From contig SVBE01000005.1 of NCBI GenBank assembly GCA_015059065.1, positions 1-64,000 on the forward strand: a stretch of DNA of 64,000 bases. Reading direction: 5' to 3'. Position numbers and translations under genes: made by a program. The stretch is from Erysipelotrichaceae bacterium (lineage in GTDB: Bacteria > Bacillota_I > Bacilli_A > RFN20 > CAG-826). The notes under the pieces were generated by a model, which worked only from the letters and a program-made list of their open reading frames with translations, did no database searches and had not been told where the DNA came from. Shown here in pieces: positions 5,195 through 15,933 of the stretch (its first letter is position 1; each line of letters opens with the position of its first letter).

Positions 5195-7018
5195 ATGAAA
5201 AAGAAACATTTATTACCATTAACAGCATTTGCATTATTGATGATGATGGGATGCTCAGTATCAGGAAATAGTGGAACAACTGCTGATACTTCAAATAATT
5301 CATCAACAGCTACAACTGCTGAGACTAGTGGCACAACTAGTGAGAACAATGGATCGGCGTATGATTATAATTCTCAAATCTCAGTAGAAGAAGCAGAAGA
5401 AATAGAGGTCGAAGATAATACAGGTGACTTCGCGATTGAAACTAGCGATGGTATTTATAGCCAATCAGGCAATATTTATAAGATTACTTCTGCTGGAACA
5501 TATACATTAAGTGGGAACCTCACTGGTCAAATATTAGTAGAAGCTGGTGAAGATGATGAGGTAGTTATTGAACTTAACGGTGTGTCTATCACATATGGTA
5601 GTGATGCTCCGATTAAAGCATTGACAGCTGGTAAAGTGGAGATCTCTGCCAAGAAAGATACAGGCAATACCATCACCGATACTCGAAGTGCGAAAACTAC
5701 TGACACTACAACTTTAGGTGAAGGGGCAATCTATGCGAAGACTGATTTGAAACTTAAGGGTAGTGGCACATTGGTAGTTGAAGGTAATTACAACAATGCG
5801 ATTCATACGACCAAGGATCTCAAGATTCAAAAATTAACATTAAAAGCAACTGGTTATAACAATGCCTTAAAAGGCAATAACAGTGTCACTATTGAATCTG
5901 GTGAAGTACAAGCCTATGCCAAAACTGGTAACGGTATCAAAACTGAAGATAGTTCTGTTTCTAGTAGCGGTAATCAAAAAGGAACAGTCGCAATCAATGG
6001 GGGAAACGTTTATATCGATTCCTTACATGACGCGATTGATGCAATCTATAACATCGAAATCGATGAATTAGATAGTACTGTACCAACAGAAATCTCCATC
6101 AAAACTGGCACGAAATCCACTTATTATTCTAGATCTAGCTTCAAAGCTGACTCAGAAAAGGGATTGAAAGCAGCCAATGAAATTATCGTTAATAAAGGCA
6201 CAGTGGTGATTGCCGCTAGCGATGATGCGATCCATGCAAATTATGGTGATAGTTTAGATAATGGTTCTAAAGGATTAGGCAATATCACTGTTAATGATGG
6301 TTTGATTCAAGTGGCGAGTGGTGATGATGGATTACACGCAGATAACACCTTAACAGTTAATGGCGGCAAGATTGTGGTTACTGGTGCTACAGAAGGATAT
6401 GAAGCTAATTACATTAAGATCAACGGTGGCTATTCATATATCTACGGCACTGATGATGGTGTCAACTGTTCAAAGAAATCCTTCAATAGCTGCGCGATTA
6501 CTATCACTGGCGGTTACCTCGATGTCGCGGTCTCTAATGGCGATACAGATGGTATTGATTCCAACGGTAACTTCGCGATGAGTGGTGGTACAGTCATCAC
6601 AAGAGGATCTCCTGGAACTAGCTCAGCGATGTCTACTGGTTTAGATGTTGATGGCACTTGCTCCATTACAGGTGGCACATTCATCGCCTTCAACGGCTTA
6701 GAAACCGCTCCTAGTACGGGAAATAATGTTCTCTTTGCCGGAACAACGACAGCGGGTTCAGGTATGGGAATGGGTGGCGGTAGAGGTGGATTCGGTCGAC
6801 CAGGCCAACAAGGCACCAGTTCATCCTATTCCTTCCAAGCTGGTAGTTATACTCTCACTGGCGGAAACTTAAATATTAGCTTCACTAACGATTATAATTA
6901 CGGAAGCTTCATGATCTACTCTTCTAACTTAGCAACTGGTAATACTTATACATTAACTAGAGGTACAACTAGTGTGTTATCTTGGAGCCAGACTTCTAGT
7001 TCAGTTACAATTTCTTAA
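5195..7018 (+). CDS. lipoprotein with carbohydrate-binding/beta-helix domain
   Basis: Start moved from 5135 to ATG 5195 with AGGAGG upstream; MKKKHLLPLTAFALLMMMGCS lipobox; repeated N-A-I-x-A and GG-Y/G-x-I-x-I turns; Gly-rich tract GMGMGGGRGGFGRPGQQG. Confidence 0.8.
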   Translation: MKKKHLLPLTAFALLMMMGCSVSGNSGTTADTSNNSSTATTAETSGTTSENNGSAYDYNSQISVEEAEEIEVEDNTGDFAIETSDGIYSQSGNIYKITSAGTYTLSGNLTGQILVEAGEDDEVVIELNGVSITYGSDAPIKALTAGKVEISAKKDTGNTITDTRSAKTTDTTTLGEGAIYAKTDLKLKGSGTLVVEGNYNNAIHTTKDLKIQKLTLKATGYNNALKGNNSVTIESGEVQAYAKTGNGIKTEDSSVSSSGNQKGTVAINGGNVYIDSLHDAIDAIYNIEIDELDSTVPTEISIKTGTKSTYYSRSSFKADSEKGLKAANEIIVNKGTVVIAASDDAIHANYGDSLDNGSKGLGNITVNDGLIQVASGDDGLHADNTLTVNGGKIVVTGATEGYEANYIKINGGYSYIYGTDDGVNCSKKSFNSCAITITGGYLDVAVSNGDTDGIDSNGNFAMSGGTVITRGSPGTSSAMSTGLDVDGTCSITGGTFIAFNGLETAPSTGNNVLFAGTTTAGSGMGMGGGRGGFGRPGQQGTSSSYSFQAGSYTLTGGNLNISFTNDYNYGSFMIYSSNLATGNTYTLTRGTTSVLSWSQTSSSVTIS

Positions 7019-7716: not shown

Positions 7717-8924
7717 TGATTAAGAAACTAAGAATAAAATTTATCATCATCTCGATGTTATCGGTTCTTTTTGTTCTCGCGGTGACTATTGGAGCGATCA
7801 ATATCACTAACTATGTCGTCATTGAAAATGAGGCGAGTGGGGCGGTCACTGAAGTGATGAGACAGGGAACTTCAAGTGAAGGCTTTATCCCTGGCCCACA
7901 AGGTGGTGGAGATAGAAGAGATATTAGACAGGACCATTATTTCATCGTTTCTTTTAATAACGATGGGACGATTAATAAAATTAATAACACCCATATGTTC
8001 ATGTATTCTGAAGCGGAATGTAAAGCATTAGCAACACAGGTCTATAACAAAGAATTAGTTGGTGGAAAATATGGCACCTTACGATATGCTTTAGAAAAGA
8101 AAAACGATGGTTTAACATATGTTGGTTTTGTCGATATCAAAGATAAAATGGACAGTTTTAATAATTTCTTATTGTTATCTTCTTTAATCTCTTTAGGTGC
8201 TTTCCTCGTCTTATTCGTTCTCATATTCTTTGGGTCTAAATTAGTATTTAAATCCACGGAAGAAGCATATCGAAAGCAGAAGAGATTTATCACAAATGCA
8301 TCGCATGAATTAAAAACACCACTGACGATTATTTCGGCAGATATGGATTTAATTGAGATGGATAATGGGAAAAGCGAATGGAGTGATTCTGTTCGCGATC
8401 AAGTGAAAAGATTAACAGATATGACTAATCAATTAGTCACTTTGTCAAAACTAGAAGAAGATGATAAGTCGCGTTTCCCAATGGAAGAATTCTCTGTTAA
8501 CGATGTCTTTAAAAAAGCCGTGGAATCATTCTCTCCAAGCTTTAAAAACGAAGGCATTAAATTCTCTAGCAATATTTCTAGCAATATCTCGATGTATGGA
8601 AATAAATATCTCATCGATCAGTTAATCTATATCTTCTTAGATAATTCTCTTAAATATACAGGGGGAGAACAAAAGAGTTCATATTTCGTCGTCAGTGAGA
8701 ACAAGAACAAAGTTGAACTGCGCTTCTCAAATACGATCGATAAAAACGATGAAGTTGACGTCAAACAAATCATGGAAAGATTCTACCGCTCCCCATCGAA
8801 TAAAAAAGAAGGTTCAGGAGTGGGGTTAAGCATCGCTCAAGAGATCATCAGATTCCATAAAGGAAAAATAGATATCGATAAAAATAATAGCACCTTATCG
8901 TTTGTTGTAACGCTGAATAATTAG
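7716..8924 (+). CDS. sensor histidine kinase
   Basis: Two TM segments, H-box FITNASHELKTPLT, N-box DNSLKY, G-box GSGVGLSIAQEI; starts on the stop of the response regulator. Confidence 0.92.
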   Translation: MIKKLRIKFIIISMLSVLFVLAVTIGAINITNYVVIENEASGAVTEVMRQGTSSEGFIPGPQGGGDRRDIRQDHYFIVSFNNDGTINKINNTHMFMYSEAECKALATQVYNKELVGGKYGTLRYALEKKNDGLTYVGFVDIKDKMDSFNNFLLLSSLISLGAFLVLFVLIFFGSKLVFKSTEEAYRKQKRFITNASHELKTPLTIISADMDLIEMDNGKSEWSDSVRDQVKRLTDMTNQLVTLSKLEEDDKSRFPMEEFSVNDVFKKAVESFSPSFKNEGIKFSSNISSNISMYGNKYLIDQLIYIFLDNSLKYTGGEQKSSYFVVSENKNKVELRFSNTIDKNDEVDVKQIMERFYRSPSNKKEGSGVGLSIAQEIIRFHKGKIDIDKNNSTLSFVVTLNN

Positions 8925-8927
8925 ATT

Positions 8928-8948
8928 AACTCCTTAAGGAGTTTTTCT
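8928..8948 (+). terminator. intrinsic terminator
   Basis: AACTCCTTAAGGAGTTTTTC. Confidence 0.7.
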
Positions 8949-8967
8949 TTATATTATATATGAGTAA

Positions 8968-8976
8968 TGTTATAAT
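8968..8976 (+). promoter_or_regulatory. extended -10 promoter element (TGTTATAAT)
   Basis: TGnTATAAT 7 nt before predicted RNA start at about 8983. Confidence 0.6.
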
Positions 8977-8982
8977 TTTATT

Positions 8983-9330
8983 GTTACATATATGCAGACT
9001 CCAAACGCGTCATAAGGTCGAAGAATGAAACACTTCTAGAGTAGACATAAACTTGGCTCAAAACGGGAAGAGGGCACCCATATATGGAACTGGTATGTCG
9101 TATGTGTTAGGGCATATCAATGTGGAAAGCACCGCCCAGTGTGAAATGAGCCCCCAAAGGAACAAACCCAATGCGGAATCCCAAAGGGCAAGATGTTCAT
9201 GCAAACGCTCCACACAATAGAAATATTGATCCTGAGGCCATCCAAGGAAGGATGTAACACCACAAGGTAGAACTGGTAGGGATATCAGAGGCTATCTTGA
9301 CAAAGGTGTTTTCATTTGGATGGCTTTTTA
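8983..9330 (+). ncRNA. candidate structured non-coding RNA, family unidentified
   Basis: No ORF; visibly GC-richer than flanks; own extended -10; 3' rod hairpin (9237-9245/9316-9324, 9256-9261/9305-9310, 9264-9270/9292-9298, 9273-9277/9284-9288) followed by T-run; long-range ATCAAT(9116-9121)/ATTGAT(9225-9230). Confidence 0.55.
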
Positions 9331-9386
9331 TATTTCTCCTTTTGTGAACACCTTAAAGTTCATTGTTCAAGATAGGAGGGAAAAAG

Positions 9387-10505
9387 ATGAACAAAGACTA
9401 TGACAATGCTGTTAAGGTCATTAAAACAGCAATTTTAAACAGCCAATTAGATGCACTAAAGTCCATCAATGAAAAACAATTGATTCTTTATTATGCAATT
9501 GGCAAGTACATTTCGCTTAACACCAGAAATGGGAAATGGGGAGAAAGTGTTATTGATGAGATAGGTAATCGATTGAACGCAGAACTTCCCGGTTTAAGAG
9601 GCTTTTCAAGCAGAAATTTGAGAAACATGAGGCAATTCTATGAAGAGTGGAAAATGCTAGAACATGTTAAAAATGATAATTTGGAAGACGCGTCTGCCAA
9701 AATACAAAATATAATTGATTGCTCTATCAACATTGAGTACATCAATAGTGTGTTTGATATTGATATTCATGATTTTTTATCATTGTCATTTTCTAATCAT
9801 ATGATTATTATTTCAAAAGTTAAGTCGATGGTTGAAAGATTATTTTATTTAAAGCAATGTATTTCTAATCGATATAGTTATCGTGAGTTGAAAATTGCTA
9901 TATCTAATGACGACTATCATCACCAAGGACAACTATCCAACAATTTTGAGAAAACTATATCAGACAATAGCAGAGTTATTAAGGCAATTAATTCTTTTAA
10001 AGATCAATATTTGCTAGATTATGTTAATGCTGAAGAGATTGATGTTAGAGATAAGATGGATGTCGATGAAAAAGTGATTGAAAATGGTATAGTTCATAAC
10101 ATTAAGAGATTTATTCTTACTTTCGGCAAAGATTTTGCTTTTATTGGGAACCAATATCATCTTGAAGTATTTGGAGAAGACCAATATGTAGATTTGTTGT
10201 TCTTCAATAGAGAACTTAATTGTTTGGTGGCGGTTGAGCTCAAAACTGGAAAATTCAAAACATCATATCTTGGGCAATTAAGCGGATATCTTGCCGTTCT
10301 AGATAAATGTGAAAGAAAAGAACACGAAAACCTGCCTATTGGAATAATATTGTGTAAAGATATGAATAAATCATTCGTCGATTTTGTGATTCGCGATTAC
10401 AATAGCCCAATGGGTGTTTCTACATATAAAGATATGTCAGATAAAGTGAAAGAGCACCTACCTAGTATTGAAGAGTTAACCAAACTCCTTGATTCAGATG
10501 ATTGA
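9387..10505 (+). CDS. DUF1016 (YhcG-type) PDDEXK nuclease domain protein
   Basis: Start moved from TTG 9363 to ATG 9387 with AGGAGGG upstream; N-terminal DUF1016 helices; C-terminal YVDLLFFNRELNCLVAVELKTGKF (D...ExK). Confidence 0.85.
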   Translation: MNKDYDNAVKVIKTAILNSQLDALKSINEKQLILYYAIGKYISLNTRNGKWGESVIDEIGNRLNAELPGLRGFSSRNLRNMRQFYEEWKMLEHVKNDNLEDASAKIQNIIDCSINIEYINSVFDIDIHDFLSLSFSNHMIIISKVKSMVERLFYLKQCISNRYSYRELKIAISNDDYHHQGQLSNNFEKTISDNSRVIKAINSFKDQYLLDYVNAEEIDVRDKMDVDEKVIENGIVHNIKRFILTFGKDFAFIGNQYHLEVFGEDQYVDLLFFNRELNCLVAVELKTGKFKTSYLGQLSGYLAVLDKCERKEHENLPIGIILCKDMNKSFVDFVIRDYNSPMGVSTYKDMSDKVKEHLPSIEELTKLLDSDD

Positions 10506-11938: not shown

Positions 11939-14900
11939 ATAAAAAAATTCATGGATTATTATTAGGGTCTGGACTACTGCTATCAGCGCTTGCTGGTGCT
12001 TTTTTCTTTTCCCCAAAGACTAATGCTTATCAAGAAGTAAAAGCGGACGCTGTTGATAGCTTTTATATCGGTGGACAAGAATTAACAACTGAAGCTCCTG
12101 TTGAATCAGGTGGTGGAAGTGCCACACTTGCTTTAACTGAAACAGAAGCAATCATCACCCTTGATAATTTTAAATATACTGGAGTAGGGAGTGAAATTGC
12201 GACTAGCAAATATGCCTCCTTTGGTTTTACTATTTATTCTACCCGAAACGTTAAAATTATCGTTAAAGGCGAGAATGAAATTAACAATACAATAGATAGT
12301 GCGGAAGGGTCTTCATACGGTATTTACTGTTACTTTCATAAAGGGGATGCCGCAGTGTATAACCGCGCGGATTTTGTTTCGTATGATGAAGAAAATATAC
12401 ATTCGTTGAAAGCCTGTGGAAGTGGTGCAGGCGTCAGTAATACTGCCGGCTTATATGCTTATTATGGAAAATTCCATTTTATGGGACCAGATTTATCATT
12501 TATTGGTGGAGATAATGCCGTTACTACAAGTGGCGGAATGATGTGTGATGGTTACCTTTCACTTTCTTTTGAATCAGGAAAAATAGTTGCTTATGGAGGC
12601 TCATCAGCCAAGAGTTCGTATGGAATTCTAACTAAAGGATCGACTACAATAACTGGCAACGATACAATTGTTGAATGTATAGCGGGCACCAGTGGAGATG
12701 GTTATGATTCAATTGGTTTTTCATCTCTAGATTCAGATGTGGGTGTTAGTGGTGGCTCAACAATTTTTAGTGGTAACACATATGGTATAACTCTTCGTAC
12801 TGACACTAGATTAGCTGTATCTGGCTCAGCAGACCTCACTTTATATGGCGGCACTTATGCGCTTTATGGTGGTACTCAGACTTTTAATGGTGGTTTAAGA
12901 AATACTATGCTCGGTTACACTTGGGACCAAGATAATAATAGAGTCGAACTTGATAAGCATGCTAACGAGTCAACATATTTGTCGGCAGACATTAAAAAGG
13001 TGTTTTTAGGTGAACTTGAATTTTCCGTTTCTGAGGAAGGTGAAGTGGAATATACAGGGTCAGCGATTCCTGTAGCCGATATTAAGCCAACTAAGTCGTC
13101 TTCTAATTATGATATTAAATATGGGCTAACTGATGGTGTATACGATTTAGATACATGCCCAACTTGTACAAATACTGGTGAGACAGCGACTGTTTATTAC
13201 AAAATCAGTGCAGAAAATTATCACGCGAAAAATGGGGCTACATCTGTAACTGGTTCTAGAACTATTGAAGTTGTTAAAGCAACTGGTAAAATCGATCAAG
13301 AAGCAGTGGGAGCGACTGATTTATCCTATGATGGAAGCACTCATGATTTATTAACAACTCTACCAACTGCGAAAGCTTTAGGTACTATTGAATATCGTGT
13401 TAATGATGCCGAGTCTTTTGAAACTACGGCTCCGACTGCCATAAATGCTGGTGATTATAAAATCGATTATAGAGTGCAAGCGGATGAAAATCACACTGCA
13501 TCTGATATTAAAACTTTGAATGTATCTATTGCAAAAGTAGCTGGTACAGTGGCTTCAGAAGCAGTGGTTGCGACTAATCTTGTCTATAACGGCAAATCTC
13601 AACACTTATTTTCAGTTGCTCCAACAGCGACTTTAAACGGCACAATTGAATATCGTATTAATGATGCTGAATTATTTACTACTAATGAACCTACTTCAAT
13701 TGATGCTGGTACTTTTAAAATTGAATATAGAGTTAAAGAAGATACTAATCACACCGCATCTGAACTTTATACAGTTAATGTATCAATGGCGAAAGCTACT
13801 AATTCTTACACTAGTGAGCCAAGAATCTTCTTTGATAATTACTATACTGGAGAAGAAAAACCTTTAGTGACTGAAGGTGCTGCATTTAGTGGAACAGTAT
13901 ATTATAAAGTCGATGATGGAGAATATAGCACTGTTATTCCAACGAGAACTGATGTTGGAAAATATGTCGTCTATTATAAAGTCGATGGTGGTAACAATTA
14001 TATGGATATCGAGGAGAGTTCGCTTAATGCAAGCATTTCTCCGGTTAATAAAAATAGTCTTATTAATTTAATTAAAACAGCGGAAGCTTATAGCGAAGAA
14101 ATTGCTGAAGAAGCTCCAAGTATCGCTACTGCATTAAACGAAGTAATCAGCGAAGCAATAGTGGTGAGAGACGAAGTCAATAAGACTAGTGTTGAAGTCA
14201 ATAGTTCTCGTTTATCACTTCAAAATGCGATCGATAATGCACAAGCTTCATTTGTGATGGCAAGAATCGATAAGATTCCAAATCCTGTCGTTTTAACAGA
14301 TGAATGCTATGCACTAATGACTAGCGCGAATGAAGCGTATCAAAAATTAAGCCAATCTGTAAAAACAAAAGTTACTAATTATTCATTATTAACTGGAGGT
14401 AATGTCAGATTTGTGAAACTCGCAATCGATAATATCGGTGAAGTGGTTTATAGCGAAGAATTTCAGGCGAAGATTGAAGCGGTTAGAGGCTACTATAATG
14501 CCATTAATGGCACAGAAAAATCTTTGATTACCAACTATTCAACTTTACAAGACGCTGAAAAAACATATGCAAAATTAAAAGAAGATTATACTGCCGCCAA
14601 TATAGTAATTGCTCTTATCGATGATATCGGTGACTATACTTATACCGATGCTTTCAAAACCAAGATTGCTAAAGTTAGAACATCTTTTGAGGCTTTAACA
14701 AGCGATCAAAAGGCCCTTGTTAGCAATGTTGAAGTTTTAGATAATGCCGAATTATTCTATAACCAAATTGAAAATGCGATTAAAAAGATCAATGCGATTG
14801 GTACAGTGAAGTATCCATCTAGTGAAAAAGCTATTTTAGATGCAAGAACTGCCTATGATGCATTAAGCGAGGAACAAAAAGCATTTGTGGATAATGCTGA

Positions 14901-15933
14901 AACATTAGAGAAAGACGAACTTTTCTTTAATCAGATCGATAATGCATTTGATTTAATCGATGCGATTGGCGAAGTCAAATATCCTGATAGTGAAAAAGCC
15001 ATTGCTGATGCAAAAGAAGCCTATGACGCACTAACTGATGAACAAAAGGACTTTGTCACAAATTATAACACTTTGATGGATGCAAGAACGTTCTATGACC
15101 AGATTGATACTACGTTTAAGAGAATTAACGCTATTGGTGAAGTCAAATATCCCGATAGTGAAAAAGCCATTGCGGATGCAAGAAGTTCTTATAACAATTT
15201 GGCAGACGCCCAAAAGGCTTTCGTGGATGAAGATACCTACAATATTCTTTTAAATGCTGAAGCCACTTATAAGAAAACCTCCGATGATCATAAAGAAGCC
15301 GATTCGGTCACTTCTTTGATTAAGAGAATTGGAAAAGTGGAATATACTACCCCTTGTAAAAATAGAATTAATAATGCGAGAGAAGCTTATGATGCTTTAA
15401 CTAATGATGCACAGAGAGGCTATGTTTCGAATTATGAAACATTAACAGCGGCTGAATCATTATACGCTAGCCTTAAAGTCAATTATGATGCGGCTAACGA
15501 AGTTGCTTCTCTTATCAATTCGATTGATGAAGTCAATTTAAACAATGACTGCAAAGCCAAGATTGAAGAGGCGAGAAACAAATATAACGCCTTAAACGAA
15601 GAACAAAAAGCCCTTGTTAAGCTCGACGTTTATGAAACCTTAGTAAATGCGGAAAACACTTATACTGGTTTAAATAATAACAGAAGGAATTGGACTATTG
15701 CCGGTGTCGGTGCGGCCGGTTTAGTTCTCGTTTTAGTCTTAATATACTCTTTATCCTTCTTTGTCTTTAATAAATGGGCTTTAGTTGATGGTGAAGTAAT
15801 CAGGGTTGTAAAGATTGGTAGGAAATATGGTGCGAACAAGATGTTAGCGATGCCATTTAAAGTAATATATTGTGAAAACGACATCATCTTTAAGAAAAAA
15901 GCAGACGCGATAAATAAGCAATCCGCTAAATAA
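11939..15933 (+). CDS. large cell-surface protein (signal peptide, MBG/Ig-like repeats, FIVAR-like helical repeats, C-terminal TM); start codon disrupted
   Basis: Frame is open from 11932 to 15933, and the signal peptide KKIHGLLLGSGLLLSALAGAFFFSPKTNA lies upstream of the listed start 12355; there is no in-frame ATG/GTG/TTG before the signal peptide; ~56-aa helical repeats near the C-terminus. Confidence 0.75.
14740..15240 (+). repeat. tandem protein-level repeats (~56 aa / 168 bp)
   Basis: Repeating NQIxNAxxxIxAIGEVKYPDSEKAIADAxxAYDALxDEQKxFV units. Confidence 0.75.

What the first reader, a model, noticed from the sequence alone, without database searches (positions are those of the whole stretch)
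8983..9330. Orphan ~345-nt structured RNA upstream of a DUF1016 nuclease
A noncoding stretch, visibly richer in G+C than its flanks, begins 7 nt after a perfect extended -10 (TGTTATAAT, 8968-8976) and ends at a T-run. Its 3' domain folds by eye into one long rod: GCCATCCAA/TTGGATGGC (9237-9245/9316-9324), AACACC/GGTGTT (9256-9261/9305-9310), AAGGTAG/CTATCTT (9264-9270/9292-9298), CTGGT/ATCAG (9273-9277/9284-9288). A long-range helix ATCAAT/ATTGAT (9116-9121/9225-9230) continues into TGTGG/CCACA (9121-9125/9210-9214, sharing one base). I compared it with tmRNA, RNase P, SRP RNA, 6S, group I/II intron and T-box signatures and found no match. It may belong to a known large ncRNA class (for example raiA or ROOL) that I cannot recognise, or be new.
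Basis: partly seen in the sequence, partly recalled or inferred. Interest (0 to 1): 0.75.

Follow-up and report, generated by a model that had tools for sequence, protein, structure and literature searches.

The report
Portable off-switch RNA before toxin genes
In one group of gut Bacilli, a large folded RNA of about 345-400 nucleotides sits just before many unrelated toxin or phage-defence genes and appears to hold them off with two built-in locks, a transcription stop and a hidden ribosome site; only its last third was known before, as an Rfam RNA whose function I found nowhere described.

Summary
The structured RNA is real, but it is not an orphan. Its 3' third (9204-9309) is Rfam RF02941, "COG3943 RNA" (88.7 bits, gathering 71.8). 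The rest is equally conserved: in 281 genomes of the order, a model of the 5' core and RF02941 find the same sites. A nine-helix structure over 70 homologs is 88.7% paired, with changes on both sides at 45 of 58 pairs.

The unit starts at an extended -10 and runs past the T-run to the next gene's ribosome site. One arm (CCATCCA) pairs with either an early hairpin or a terminator, and both pairings co-vary. After the T-run, a covarying hairpin hides the Shine-Dalgarno in 66 of 69 loci.

The same RNA precedes unrelated genes: DUF1016/YhcG nucleases (48), an unnamed MazF-fold family (17), RhuM-Fic (16), BrnT (4). RNA type hardly follows gene family. Copies within one genome are often near-identical, while the orthologous locus in a sister species differs (80%).

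Best reading: a portable, off-by-default cis leader for toxin and defence genes, with a terminator/antiterminator switch plus translation lock. The signal is unknown, and an additional role in trans as an RNA antitoxin (abiF-like) is not excluded. There are no transcript data.

The parts
8968..8976 (+). extended -10 promoter TGTTATAAT; start of the conserved unit
   Evidence: Sequence; consensus TGnTATAAT across 70 homologs; identity between the two copies in this genome begins here.
8983..9330 (+). structured leader RNA, transcription start (inferred) to T-run
   Evidence: 88.7% of cells paired, 45/58 pairs with changes on both sides, 0/500 shuffles.
8983..9090 (+). P1 domain (helix 8983-8994/9079-9090) with an exchangeable internal subdomain; the window has type II (CGCGTCATAAGG..)
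   Evidence: helix 1, all 11 pairs with both-side changes, 77% paired; subdomain types.
9091..9119 (+). P2 hairpin with near-invariant loop GUGUUAGG
   Evidence: 98.6% paired, all 9 pairs with compensatory changes.
9121..9214 (+). P3 (9121-9126/9209-9214) enclosing conserved GGAAAG..GCCCAG and a variable insert
   Evidence: 99.0% paired.
9215..9228 (+). P4 hairpin
   Evidence: 95.1% paired.
9204..9309 (+). the part covered by Rfam RF02941 (COG3943 RNA)
   Evidence: 88.7 bits, E 7.9e-15; alignment.
9238..9254 (+). early hairpin: arm X 9239-9243 with Y 9250-9254 (candidate antiterminator)
   Evidence: 4.86 of 5 pairs in 91 loci, 0/2000 permutations; 97.4% paired.
9237..9329 (+). terminator rod: X 9237-9245 with Z 9316-9324, inner helices P6-P8, then T-run 9325-9329
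   Evidence: 6.74 of 7 pairs, 0/2000 permutations.
9333..9381 (+). Shine-Dalgarno-hiding hairpin: TTTCTCCT 9333-9340 with AGGAGGGA 9374-9381, inner stem 9345-9350/9364-9369
   Evidence: SD at least 75% paired in 66/69 loci, mean z -3.0; own partner -13.7 against permuted -11.3 kcal/mol, 0/2000.
9387..10505 (+). regulated gene: DUF1016_N + YhcG_C PDDEXK nuclease, 372 aa
   Evidence: PF06250 1.1e-44, PF17761 1.3e-28; PADLOC candidate PDC-S02.

Best explanation
8968-9386 is the promoter and leader of the DUF1016 nuclease gene, one member of a family of portable cis-acting leader RNAs that keep toxin and defence genes off by default. Proposed working: a strong extended -10 promoter makes the RNA. 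A 5' core (P1, P2 with the GUGUUAGG loop, P3) is followed by a two-state 3' domain. In the off state arm X pairs with Z and forms the rod terminator; any read-through transcript still has its Shine-Dalgarno hidden by the anti-SD just after the T-run. In the on state X pairs with the earlier Y (antiterminator), the terminator cannot close, and rearrangement around GGUGUU can open the ribosome site. Because the anti-SD mimics the 3' end of 16S rRNA, the module can work before almost any gene. Shown by sequence comparison: the complete structure, both X pairings, SD hiding, constant placement before unrelated genes, exchange between genes. Inferred: that the X-Y state is the on state, that termination is efficient, and that the 5' core senses a signal (unknown; infection or stress is my guess).
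For: RF02941 in 67 of 281 genomes of the order, 96 loci. A 5'-core model finds the same sites; the extra hits lie within about 260 nt of a contig's first base. Covariation over the whole RNA. X pairs with Y and with Z with matching compensatory sets CCATCCA/GGATG/TGGATGG, CCATCAC/TGATG/GTGATGG, CCGTCAC/TGACG/GTGACGG, CCATCTC/AGATG/GAGATGG. The two states differ by 3.5 kcal/mol in the window. SD hairpin in 66/69 loci, matched to its own locus. A same-strand gene, often starting 60-80 nt after the RF02941 end, follows at nearly every locus with room, including broken genes. Gene families: DUF1016 48, MazF-fold 17, RhuM-Fic 16, BrnT 4. G-U outnumber A-C cells 170 to 15 in the core, so the + strand RNA is what folds.
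Against: No transcript, termination or reporter data. The T-runs are short (4-6 U) and a simple terminator scan does not flag the rod. Related ncRNA-toxin loci (abiF) also act in trans (PMC12373285). The near-identity of copies within a genome is not required by a cis leader. One contig from a viral collection (L253) has the RNA followed by another hairpin with a T-run and no obvious gene in the roughly 140 nt held. The X-Y hairpin could be only a folding intermediate.
Confidence: 0.67

Rival explanations
1. RNA antitoxin (type III TA- or abiF-like): the terminated RNA accumulates and binds the toxin protein made by occasional read-through; the terminator only sets the ratio.
For: Same order: promoter, ncRNA, terminator, RNase or nuclease gene. 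One of the gene families has a MazF-like fold, and ToxN toxins are MazF-like (own knowledge). The C. difficile RNA RCd22 upstream of abiF acts in cis and in trans by direct binding (PMC12373285).
Against: One RNA family, and near-identical RNAs within a genome, precede unrelated proteins (PDDEXK nuclease, Fic/Doc, BrnT that can carry its own BrnA, KilA-N). RNA type hardly follows gene family (26 changes on the RNA tree against 31.2 in shuffles). No tandem repeats. The SD-hiding hairpin acts in cis.
Confidence: 0.2
2. A trans-acting sRNA gene that merely happens to lie upstream; the Rfam type 'sRNA' taken at face value.
For: Own promoter and T-run; Rfam types it as Gene; sRNA; homogenised copies in one genome.
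Against: A downstream same-strand gene at a near-constant distance in nearly all loci, conserved sequence and covarying SD pairing beyond the T-run.
Confidence: 0.06
3. A DNA recombination site (attC-like) or self-spreading element that shuffles toxin cassettes, with the fold acting as single-stranded DNA.
For: Different genes follow near-identical copies; copies are replaced in step within a genome.
Against: Wobble asymmetry (170 G-U against 15 A-C cells), a conserved promoter and an SD-matched hairpin point to RNA. No recombinase was seen fixed at the loci examined, though this was not searched exhaustively. Gene conversion between homologous copies explains the homogenisation.
Confidence: 0.05

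Closest known systems
Rfam RF02941, COG3943 RNA
   Same: The window's 9204-9309 scores 88.7 bits over gathering 71.8 across the whole model; RhuM (COG3943) genes are among the downstream genes here.
   Different: The model covers about one third of the conserved RNA. It lacks P1, P2, most of P3, the Z arm of the terminator and the SD hairpin. DUF1016 genes follow it three times as often as RhuM here.
abiF motif RNA (RF03085) / RCd22-AbiF of Clostridioides difficile
   Same: ncRNA with its own promoter, terminator, then a toxic defence gene; premature termination lowers the downstream gene (PMC12373285).
   Different: No RF03085 match. Far larger RNA, two-state arms, SD hiding, many gene families rather than one.
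Type III toxin-antitoxin loci (ToxIN, CptIN, TenpIN)
   Same: Single promoter, RNA, Rho-independent terminator, toxin gene (PMC5086642); one of the gene families here has a MazF-like fold.
   Different: No tandem repeats; the window's toxin is a PDDEXK nuclease, not ToxN-like.
Riboswitch or attenuator leaders with terminator/antiterminator platforms
   Same: Mutually exclusive helices sharing one arm; translation control near the start codon.
   Different: Regulated genes are unrelated toxin/defence genes, not one pathway; no ligand known.

Membership tests
RF02941 (COG3943 RNA) | score above the family's gathering threshold over the model | tested here: met
   88.7 bits against 71.8, model positions 1-108.
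RF02941 (COG3943 RNA) | consensus hairpin CAUCC/GGAUG and helix AACACC/GGUGU | tested here: met
Type III toxin-antitoxin | terminator between RNA and toxin gene | tested here: met
   Covarying rod plus T-run 9237-9329, gene at 9387; termination itself not measured.
Type III toxin-antitoxin | antitoxin made of tandem repeats | tested here: not met
   Tandem Repeats Finder: none in 8940-9400.
Type III toxin-antitoxin | ToxN-like (MazF-fold) toxin | tested here: not met
   Window gene is DUF1016/YhcG PDDEXK. A MazF-like fold was seen only in the 117-aa family at other loci.
Type III toxin-antitoxin | toxin-RNA binding and neutralisation in trans | not testable with these tools
   Needs biochemistry.
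abiF RNA (RF03085) | match to the Rfam model | tested here: not met
   Only RF02941, plus one sub-threshold snoRNA chance hit, at E up to 1 in 8900-9420.
cis-acting attenuator / riboswitch-like leader | mutually exclusive terminator and antiterminator helices, both conserved | tested here: met
cis-acting attenuator / riboswitch-like leader | constant position upstream of a same-strand gene | tested here: met
cis-acting attenuator / riboswitch-like leader | response to a ligand or signal | not testable with these tools
   No ligand or expression data.
attC-like DNA site | structure of single-stranded DNA with no RNA-strand bias | tested here: not met
   170 G-U against 15 A-C cells in the core helices.

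The most novel reading that the evidence does not exclude
A single RNA sensor class acts as a shared safety catch for an organism's arsenal: the 5' core reads one infection or stress cue and simultaneously opens the transcription and translation locks on unrelated toxin and nuclease genes, forming an RNA-controlled defence regulon kept uniform by gene conversion.
Probability: 0.33. Interest if true: 0.85.

Novelty: new variant of a known kind. Interest (0 to 1): 0.62.

Why it matters
Anti-phage and toxin genes must be silent until needed. A generic leader that can lock any of several unrelated toxins would explain how such genes are acquired safely, and it offers a single handle (what flips the RNA?) for testing what triggers a whole set of defence genes. 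It also turns an Rfam entry for which I found no described function into a specific, testable hypothesis and shows that its model is about one third of the true RNA.

Tried and rejected
- raiA, ROOL, tmRNA, RNase P, 6S, introns: no Rfam match.
- Phage or plasmid origin: no similar DNA in 50,697 phage records or 72,556 plasmids. One true RF02941 hit among the viral-collection pattern hits that were tested with Rfam.
- Pattern matches from other phyla look like chance: the eight gut Bacteroidota and Clostridia hits tested give no RF02941.
- Empty site for the window locus: synteny of the flanking kinase and CobW genes holds only in the one congener, which also carries the RNA and gene, so insertion could not be dated.
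- Pseudoknot between the P2 loop GUGUUA and UAACAC: sequences fit but are near-invariant, so untestable by covariation.
- GGUGUUUUC pairing with downstream GAAnACACC: better than letter shuffles (8.47 against 7.38 of 9) and slightly better than permuted partners (8.19). Kept only as a suggestion.
The 2017 paper presumed to describe the COG3943 motif is not held, so its authors' view was not read.

Full report
Observation. One proposed helix (9116-9121/9225-9230) is wrong; those bases belong to hairpins P2 and P4. By folding energy alone the stretch is unremarkable (z -1.6), so homologs were needed.

Identity. cmscan gives RF02941 (COG3943 RNA) at 9204-9309, 88.7 bits, and nothing else in 8900-9420 except one sub-threshold chance hit. 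The genome carries a second copy on contig C18. The two copies agree from the -10 box to about 20 nt past the T-run (99.5% over 387 bp; about 383 bp with one mismatch) and their flanks are unrelated. The second copy sits next to a tRNA-Leu gene and upstream of a RhuM-Fic gene.

Distribution. RF02941 occurs in 67 of 281 genomes of the order (96 places), almost all in one family. It was found only in that family among 396 genomes sampled across the phylum and 397 across the class. Records behind the matching loci are titled Bacilli, Erysipelotrichaceae, Bacillales and Mollicutes MAGs, many with rumen or herbivore-gut isolate names. A covariance model of the 5' core alone (P2 to GCCCAG) finds the same sites, plus four more that lie within about 260 nt of a contig's first base. 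The 5' and 3' parts are therefore one obligate unit of about 345 nt, of which Rfam models the last third.

Structure. On an alignment of 70 non-redundant homologs, a nine-helix structure is 88.7% paired; 45 of 58 pairs show changes on both sides; none of 500 shuffles reaches it; sliding the 3' arms drops pairing to 36-46%. P2 is 98.6% paired with compensatory changes at all nine pairs and a near-invariant GUGUUAGG loop. In the core helices G-U cells outnumber A-C cells 170 to 15, which identifies the + strand RNA as the folded molecule.

A two-state 3' end. Arm X (CCATCCA at 9238-9244) pairs with Y (GGATG, 9250-9254) in an early hairpin and with Z (TGGATGG) just before the T-run. Both pairings survive sequence change together: CCATCCA/GGATG/TGGATGG, CCATCAC/TGATG/GTGATGG, CCGTCAC/TGACG/GTGACGG, CCATCTC/AGATG/GAGATGG. 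Over 91 loci X-Y keeps 4.86 of 5 pairs and X-Z 6.74 of 7, with 0 of 2000 permutations reaching either. The two pairings exclude each other. In the window the two states differ by 3.5 kcal/mol. This is the signature of a terminator/antiterminator switch, although the X-Y hairpin could also be a folding intermediate.

A second lock. Conservation continues past the T-run (UCUCCUUUU..). In 66 of 69 loci with a recognisable Shine-Dalgarno, at least 75% of it is paired in a hairpin with this sequence, mean z -3.0 over 74 loci. The pairing is matched locus by locus: own partner -13.7 kcal/mol against -11.3 for permuted partners, 0 of 2000, with variants such as TTTCCTTCT/AGGAGGAAA. In the window this is 9333-9340/9374-9381, ahead of the ATG at 9387. 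Conservation of SD pairing in the next gene is the strongest evidence that the RNA works in cis.

What it controls. A same-strand gene follows nearly every copy with room, often 60-80 nt after the RF02941 end. By sequence clusters: 48 DUF1016/YhcG PDDEXK nucleases, some preceded by or fused to a 57-aa DUF4314 ORF; 17 of an unnamed 117-aa family; 16 RhuM-Fic; 4 BrnT; and singletons including KilA-N. The 117-aa family has no Pfam or NCBIfam match, folds confidently (pLDDT 87.6) and resembles MazF (nearly all of the top 32 Foldseek hits, probability mostly 0.9-1.0, TM about 0.5-0.6, but E only 0.05). Several apparent exceptions are broken genes: a BrnT remnant, and a 117-aa gene that breaks off upstream of an HTH_Tnp_2 ORF. 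DUF1016 genes without the RNA are common, so the RNA is not required for them.

RNA and gene are uncoupled. On the RNA tree the gene family changes at least 26 times, against 31.2 (minimum 28) for shuffled labels. Near-identical RNAs precede different genes within single genomes (G000 100%, G193 97%, G182 97%, G211 97%, G184 94%), while the window's DUF1016 is 95.5% identical to that of the orthologous locus in a congener whose RNA is only 80% identical. The 5' subdomain inside P1 was replaced at both loci of this genome relative to both orthologous loci of the congener. Gene conversion between copies is the simplest explanation.

Mechanism and rivals. I favour a portable off-by-default cis leader (0.67). 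The nearest tested analogue is RCd22-abiF of C. difficile, where an upstream ncRNA with a terminator lowers a toxic gene in cis and also neutralises the protein in trans (PMC12373285). An antitoxin role here (0.20) is therefore live, but one RNA type before unrelated proteins argues against a specific RNA-toxin fit, and the tandem repeats that define type III antitoxins are absent (PMC5086642). The 5' core as a sensor, and its signal, are inference.

Novelty. The RNA family is known. What I did not find described in the papers searched is its full extent, the exclusive pairings, the SD lock, its place before many toxin families, and its concerted evolution. The 2017 catalogue presumed to have introduced the motif was not available, so I cannot state what its authors noted about gene context.

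Noticed in passing
L083:325-678 (-) and 16 other loci, e.g. L088:11382-11735, L093:11399-11752: A 117-aa protein family without Pfam or NCBIfam match has a MazF/PemK-like predicted fold and often stands alone after the RNA, with no antitoxin gene identified; possibly a new mRNA-interferase family.
   Followed up: partly
L003:7201-9448 (contig C18), next to tRNA-Leu at 10052-10136: RhuM-Fic, DUF1016 and BrnT genes lie in a row behind the second RNA copy; the congener has a different gene order at the same site, with a gene remnant apparently left in this genome.
   Followed up: partly
L091, L112, L119, L094, L106, L109, L111: A 57-aa DUF4314 protein is the first gene behind the RNA at several loci, followed by DUF1016 or RhuM; in L091 it is fused to DUF1016 (390 aa).
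   Followed up: partly
L253:10000-10242: On a contig from the viral collection the RNA is followed by an unrelated hairpin with a T-run instead of the SD hairpin and gene; only about 140 nt beyond the RF02941 hit were available.
   Followed up: no
A2 alignment, inserts within P1 and P3: Peripheral inserts inside P1 (types I, II, III) and P3 (types a-e) are exchanged between RNAs independently of the gene behind them, as if they were swappable modules.
   Followed up: partly
window 12355-15933 (+): A 1192-aa protein with repeated segments (IGEVKYPDSEKAI..) and no Pfam match; looks like a surface protein.
   Followed up: no
window 5204-7018 (+): Cthe_2159 carbohydrate-binding-domain protein next to VTC-domain and DUF4956 genes and a two-component system.
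   Followed up: no
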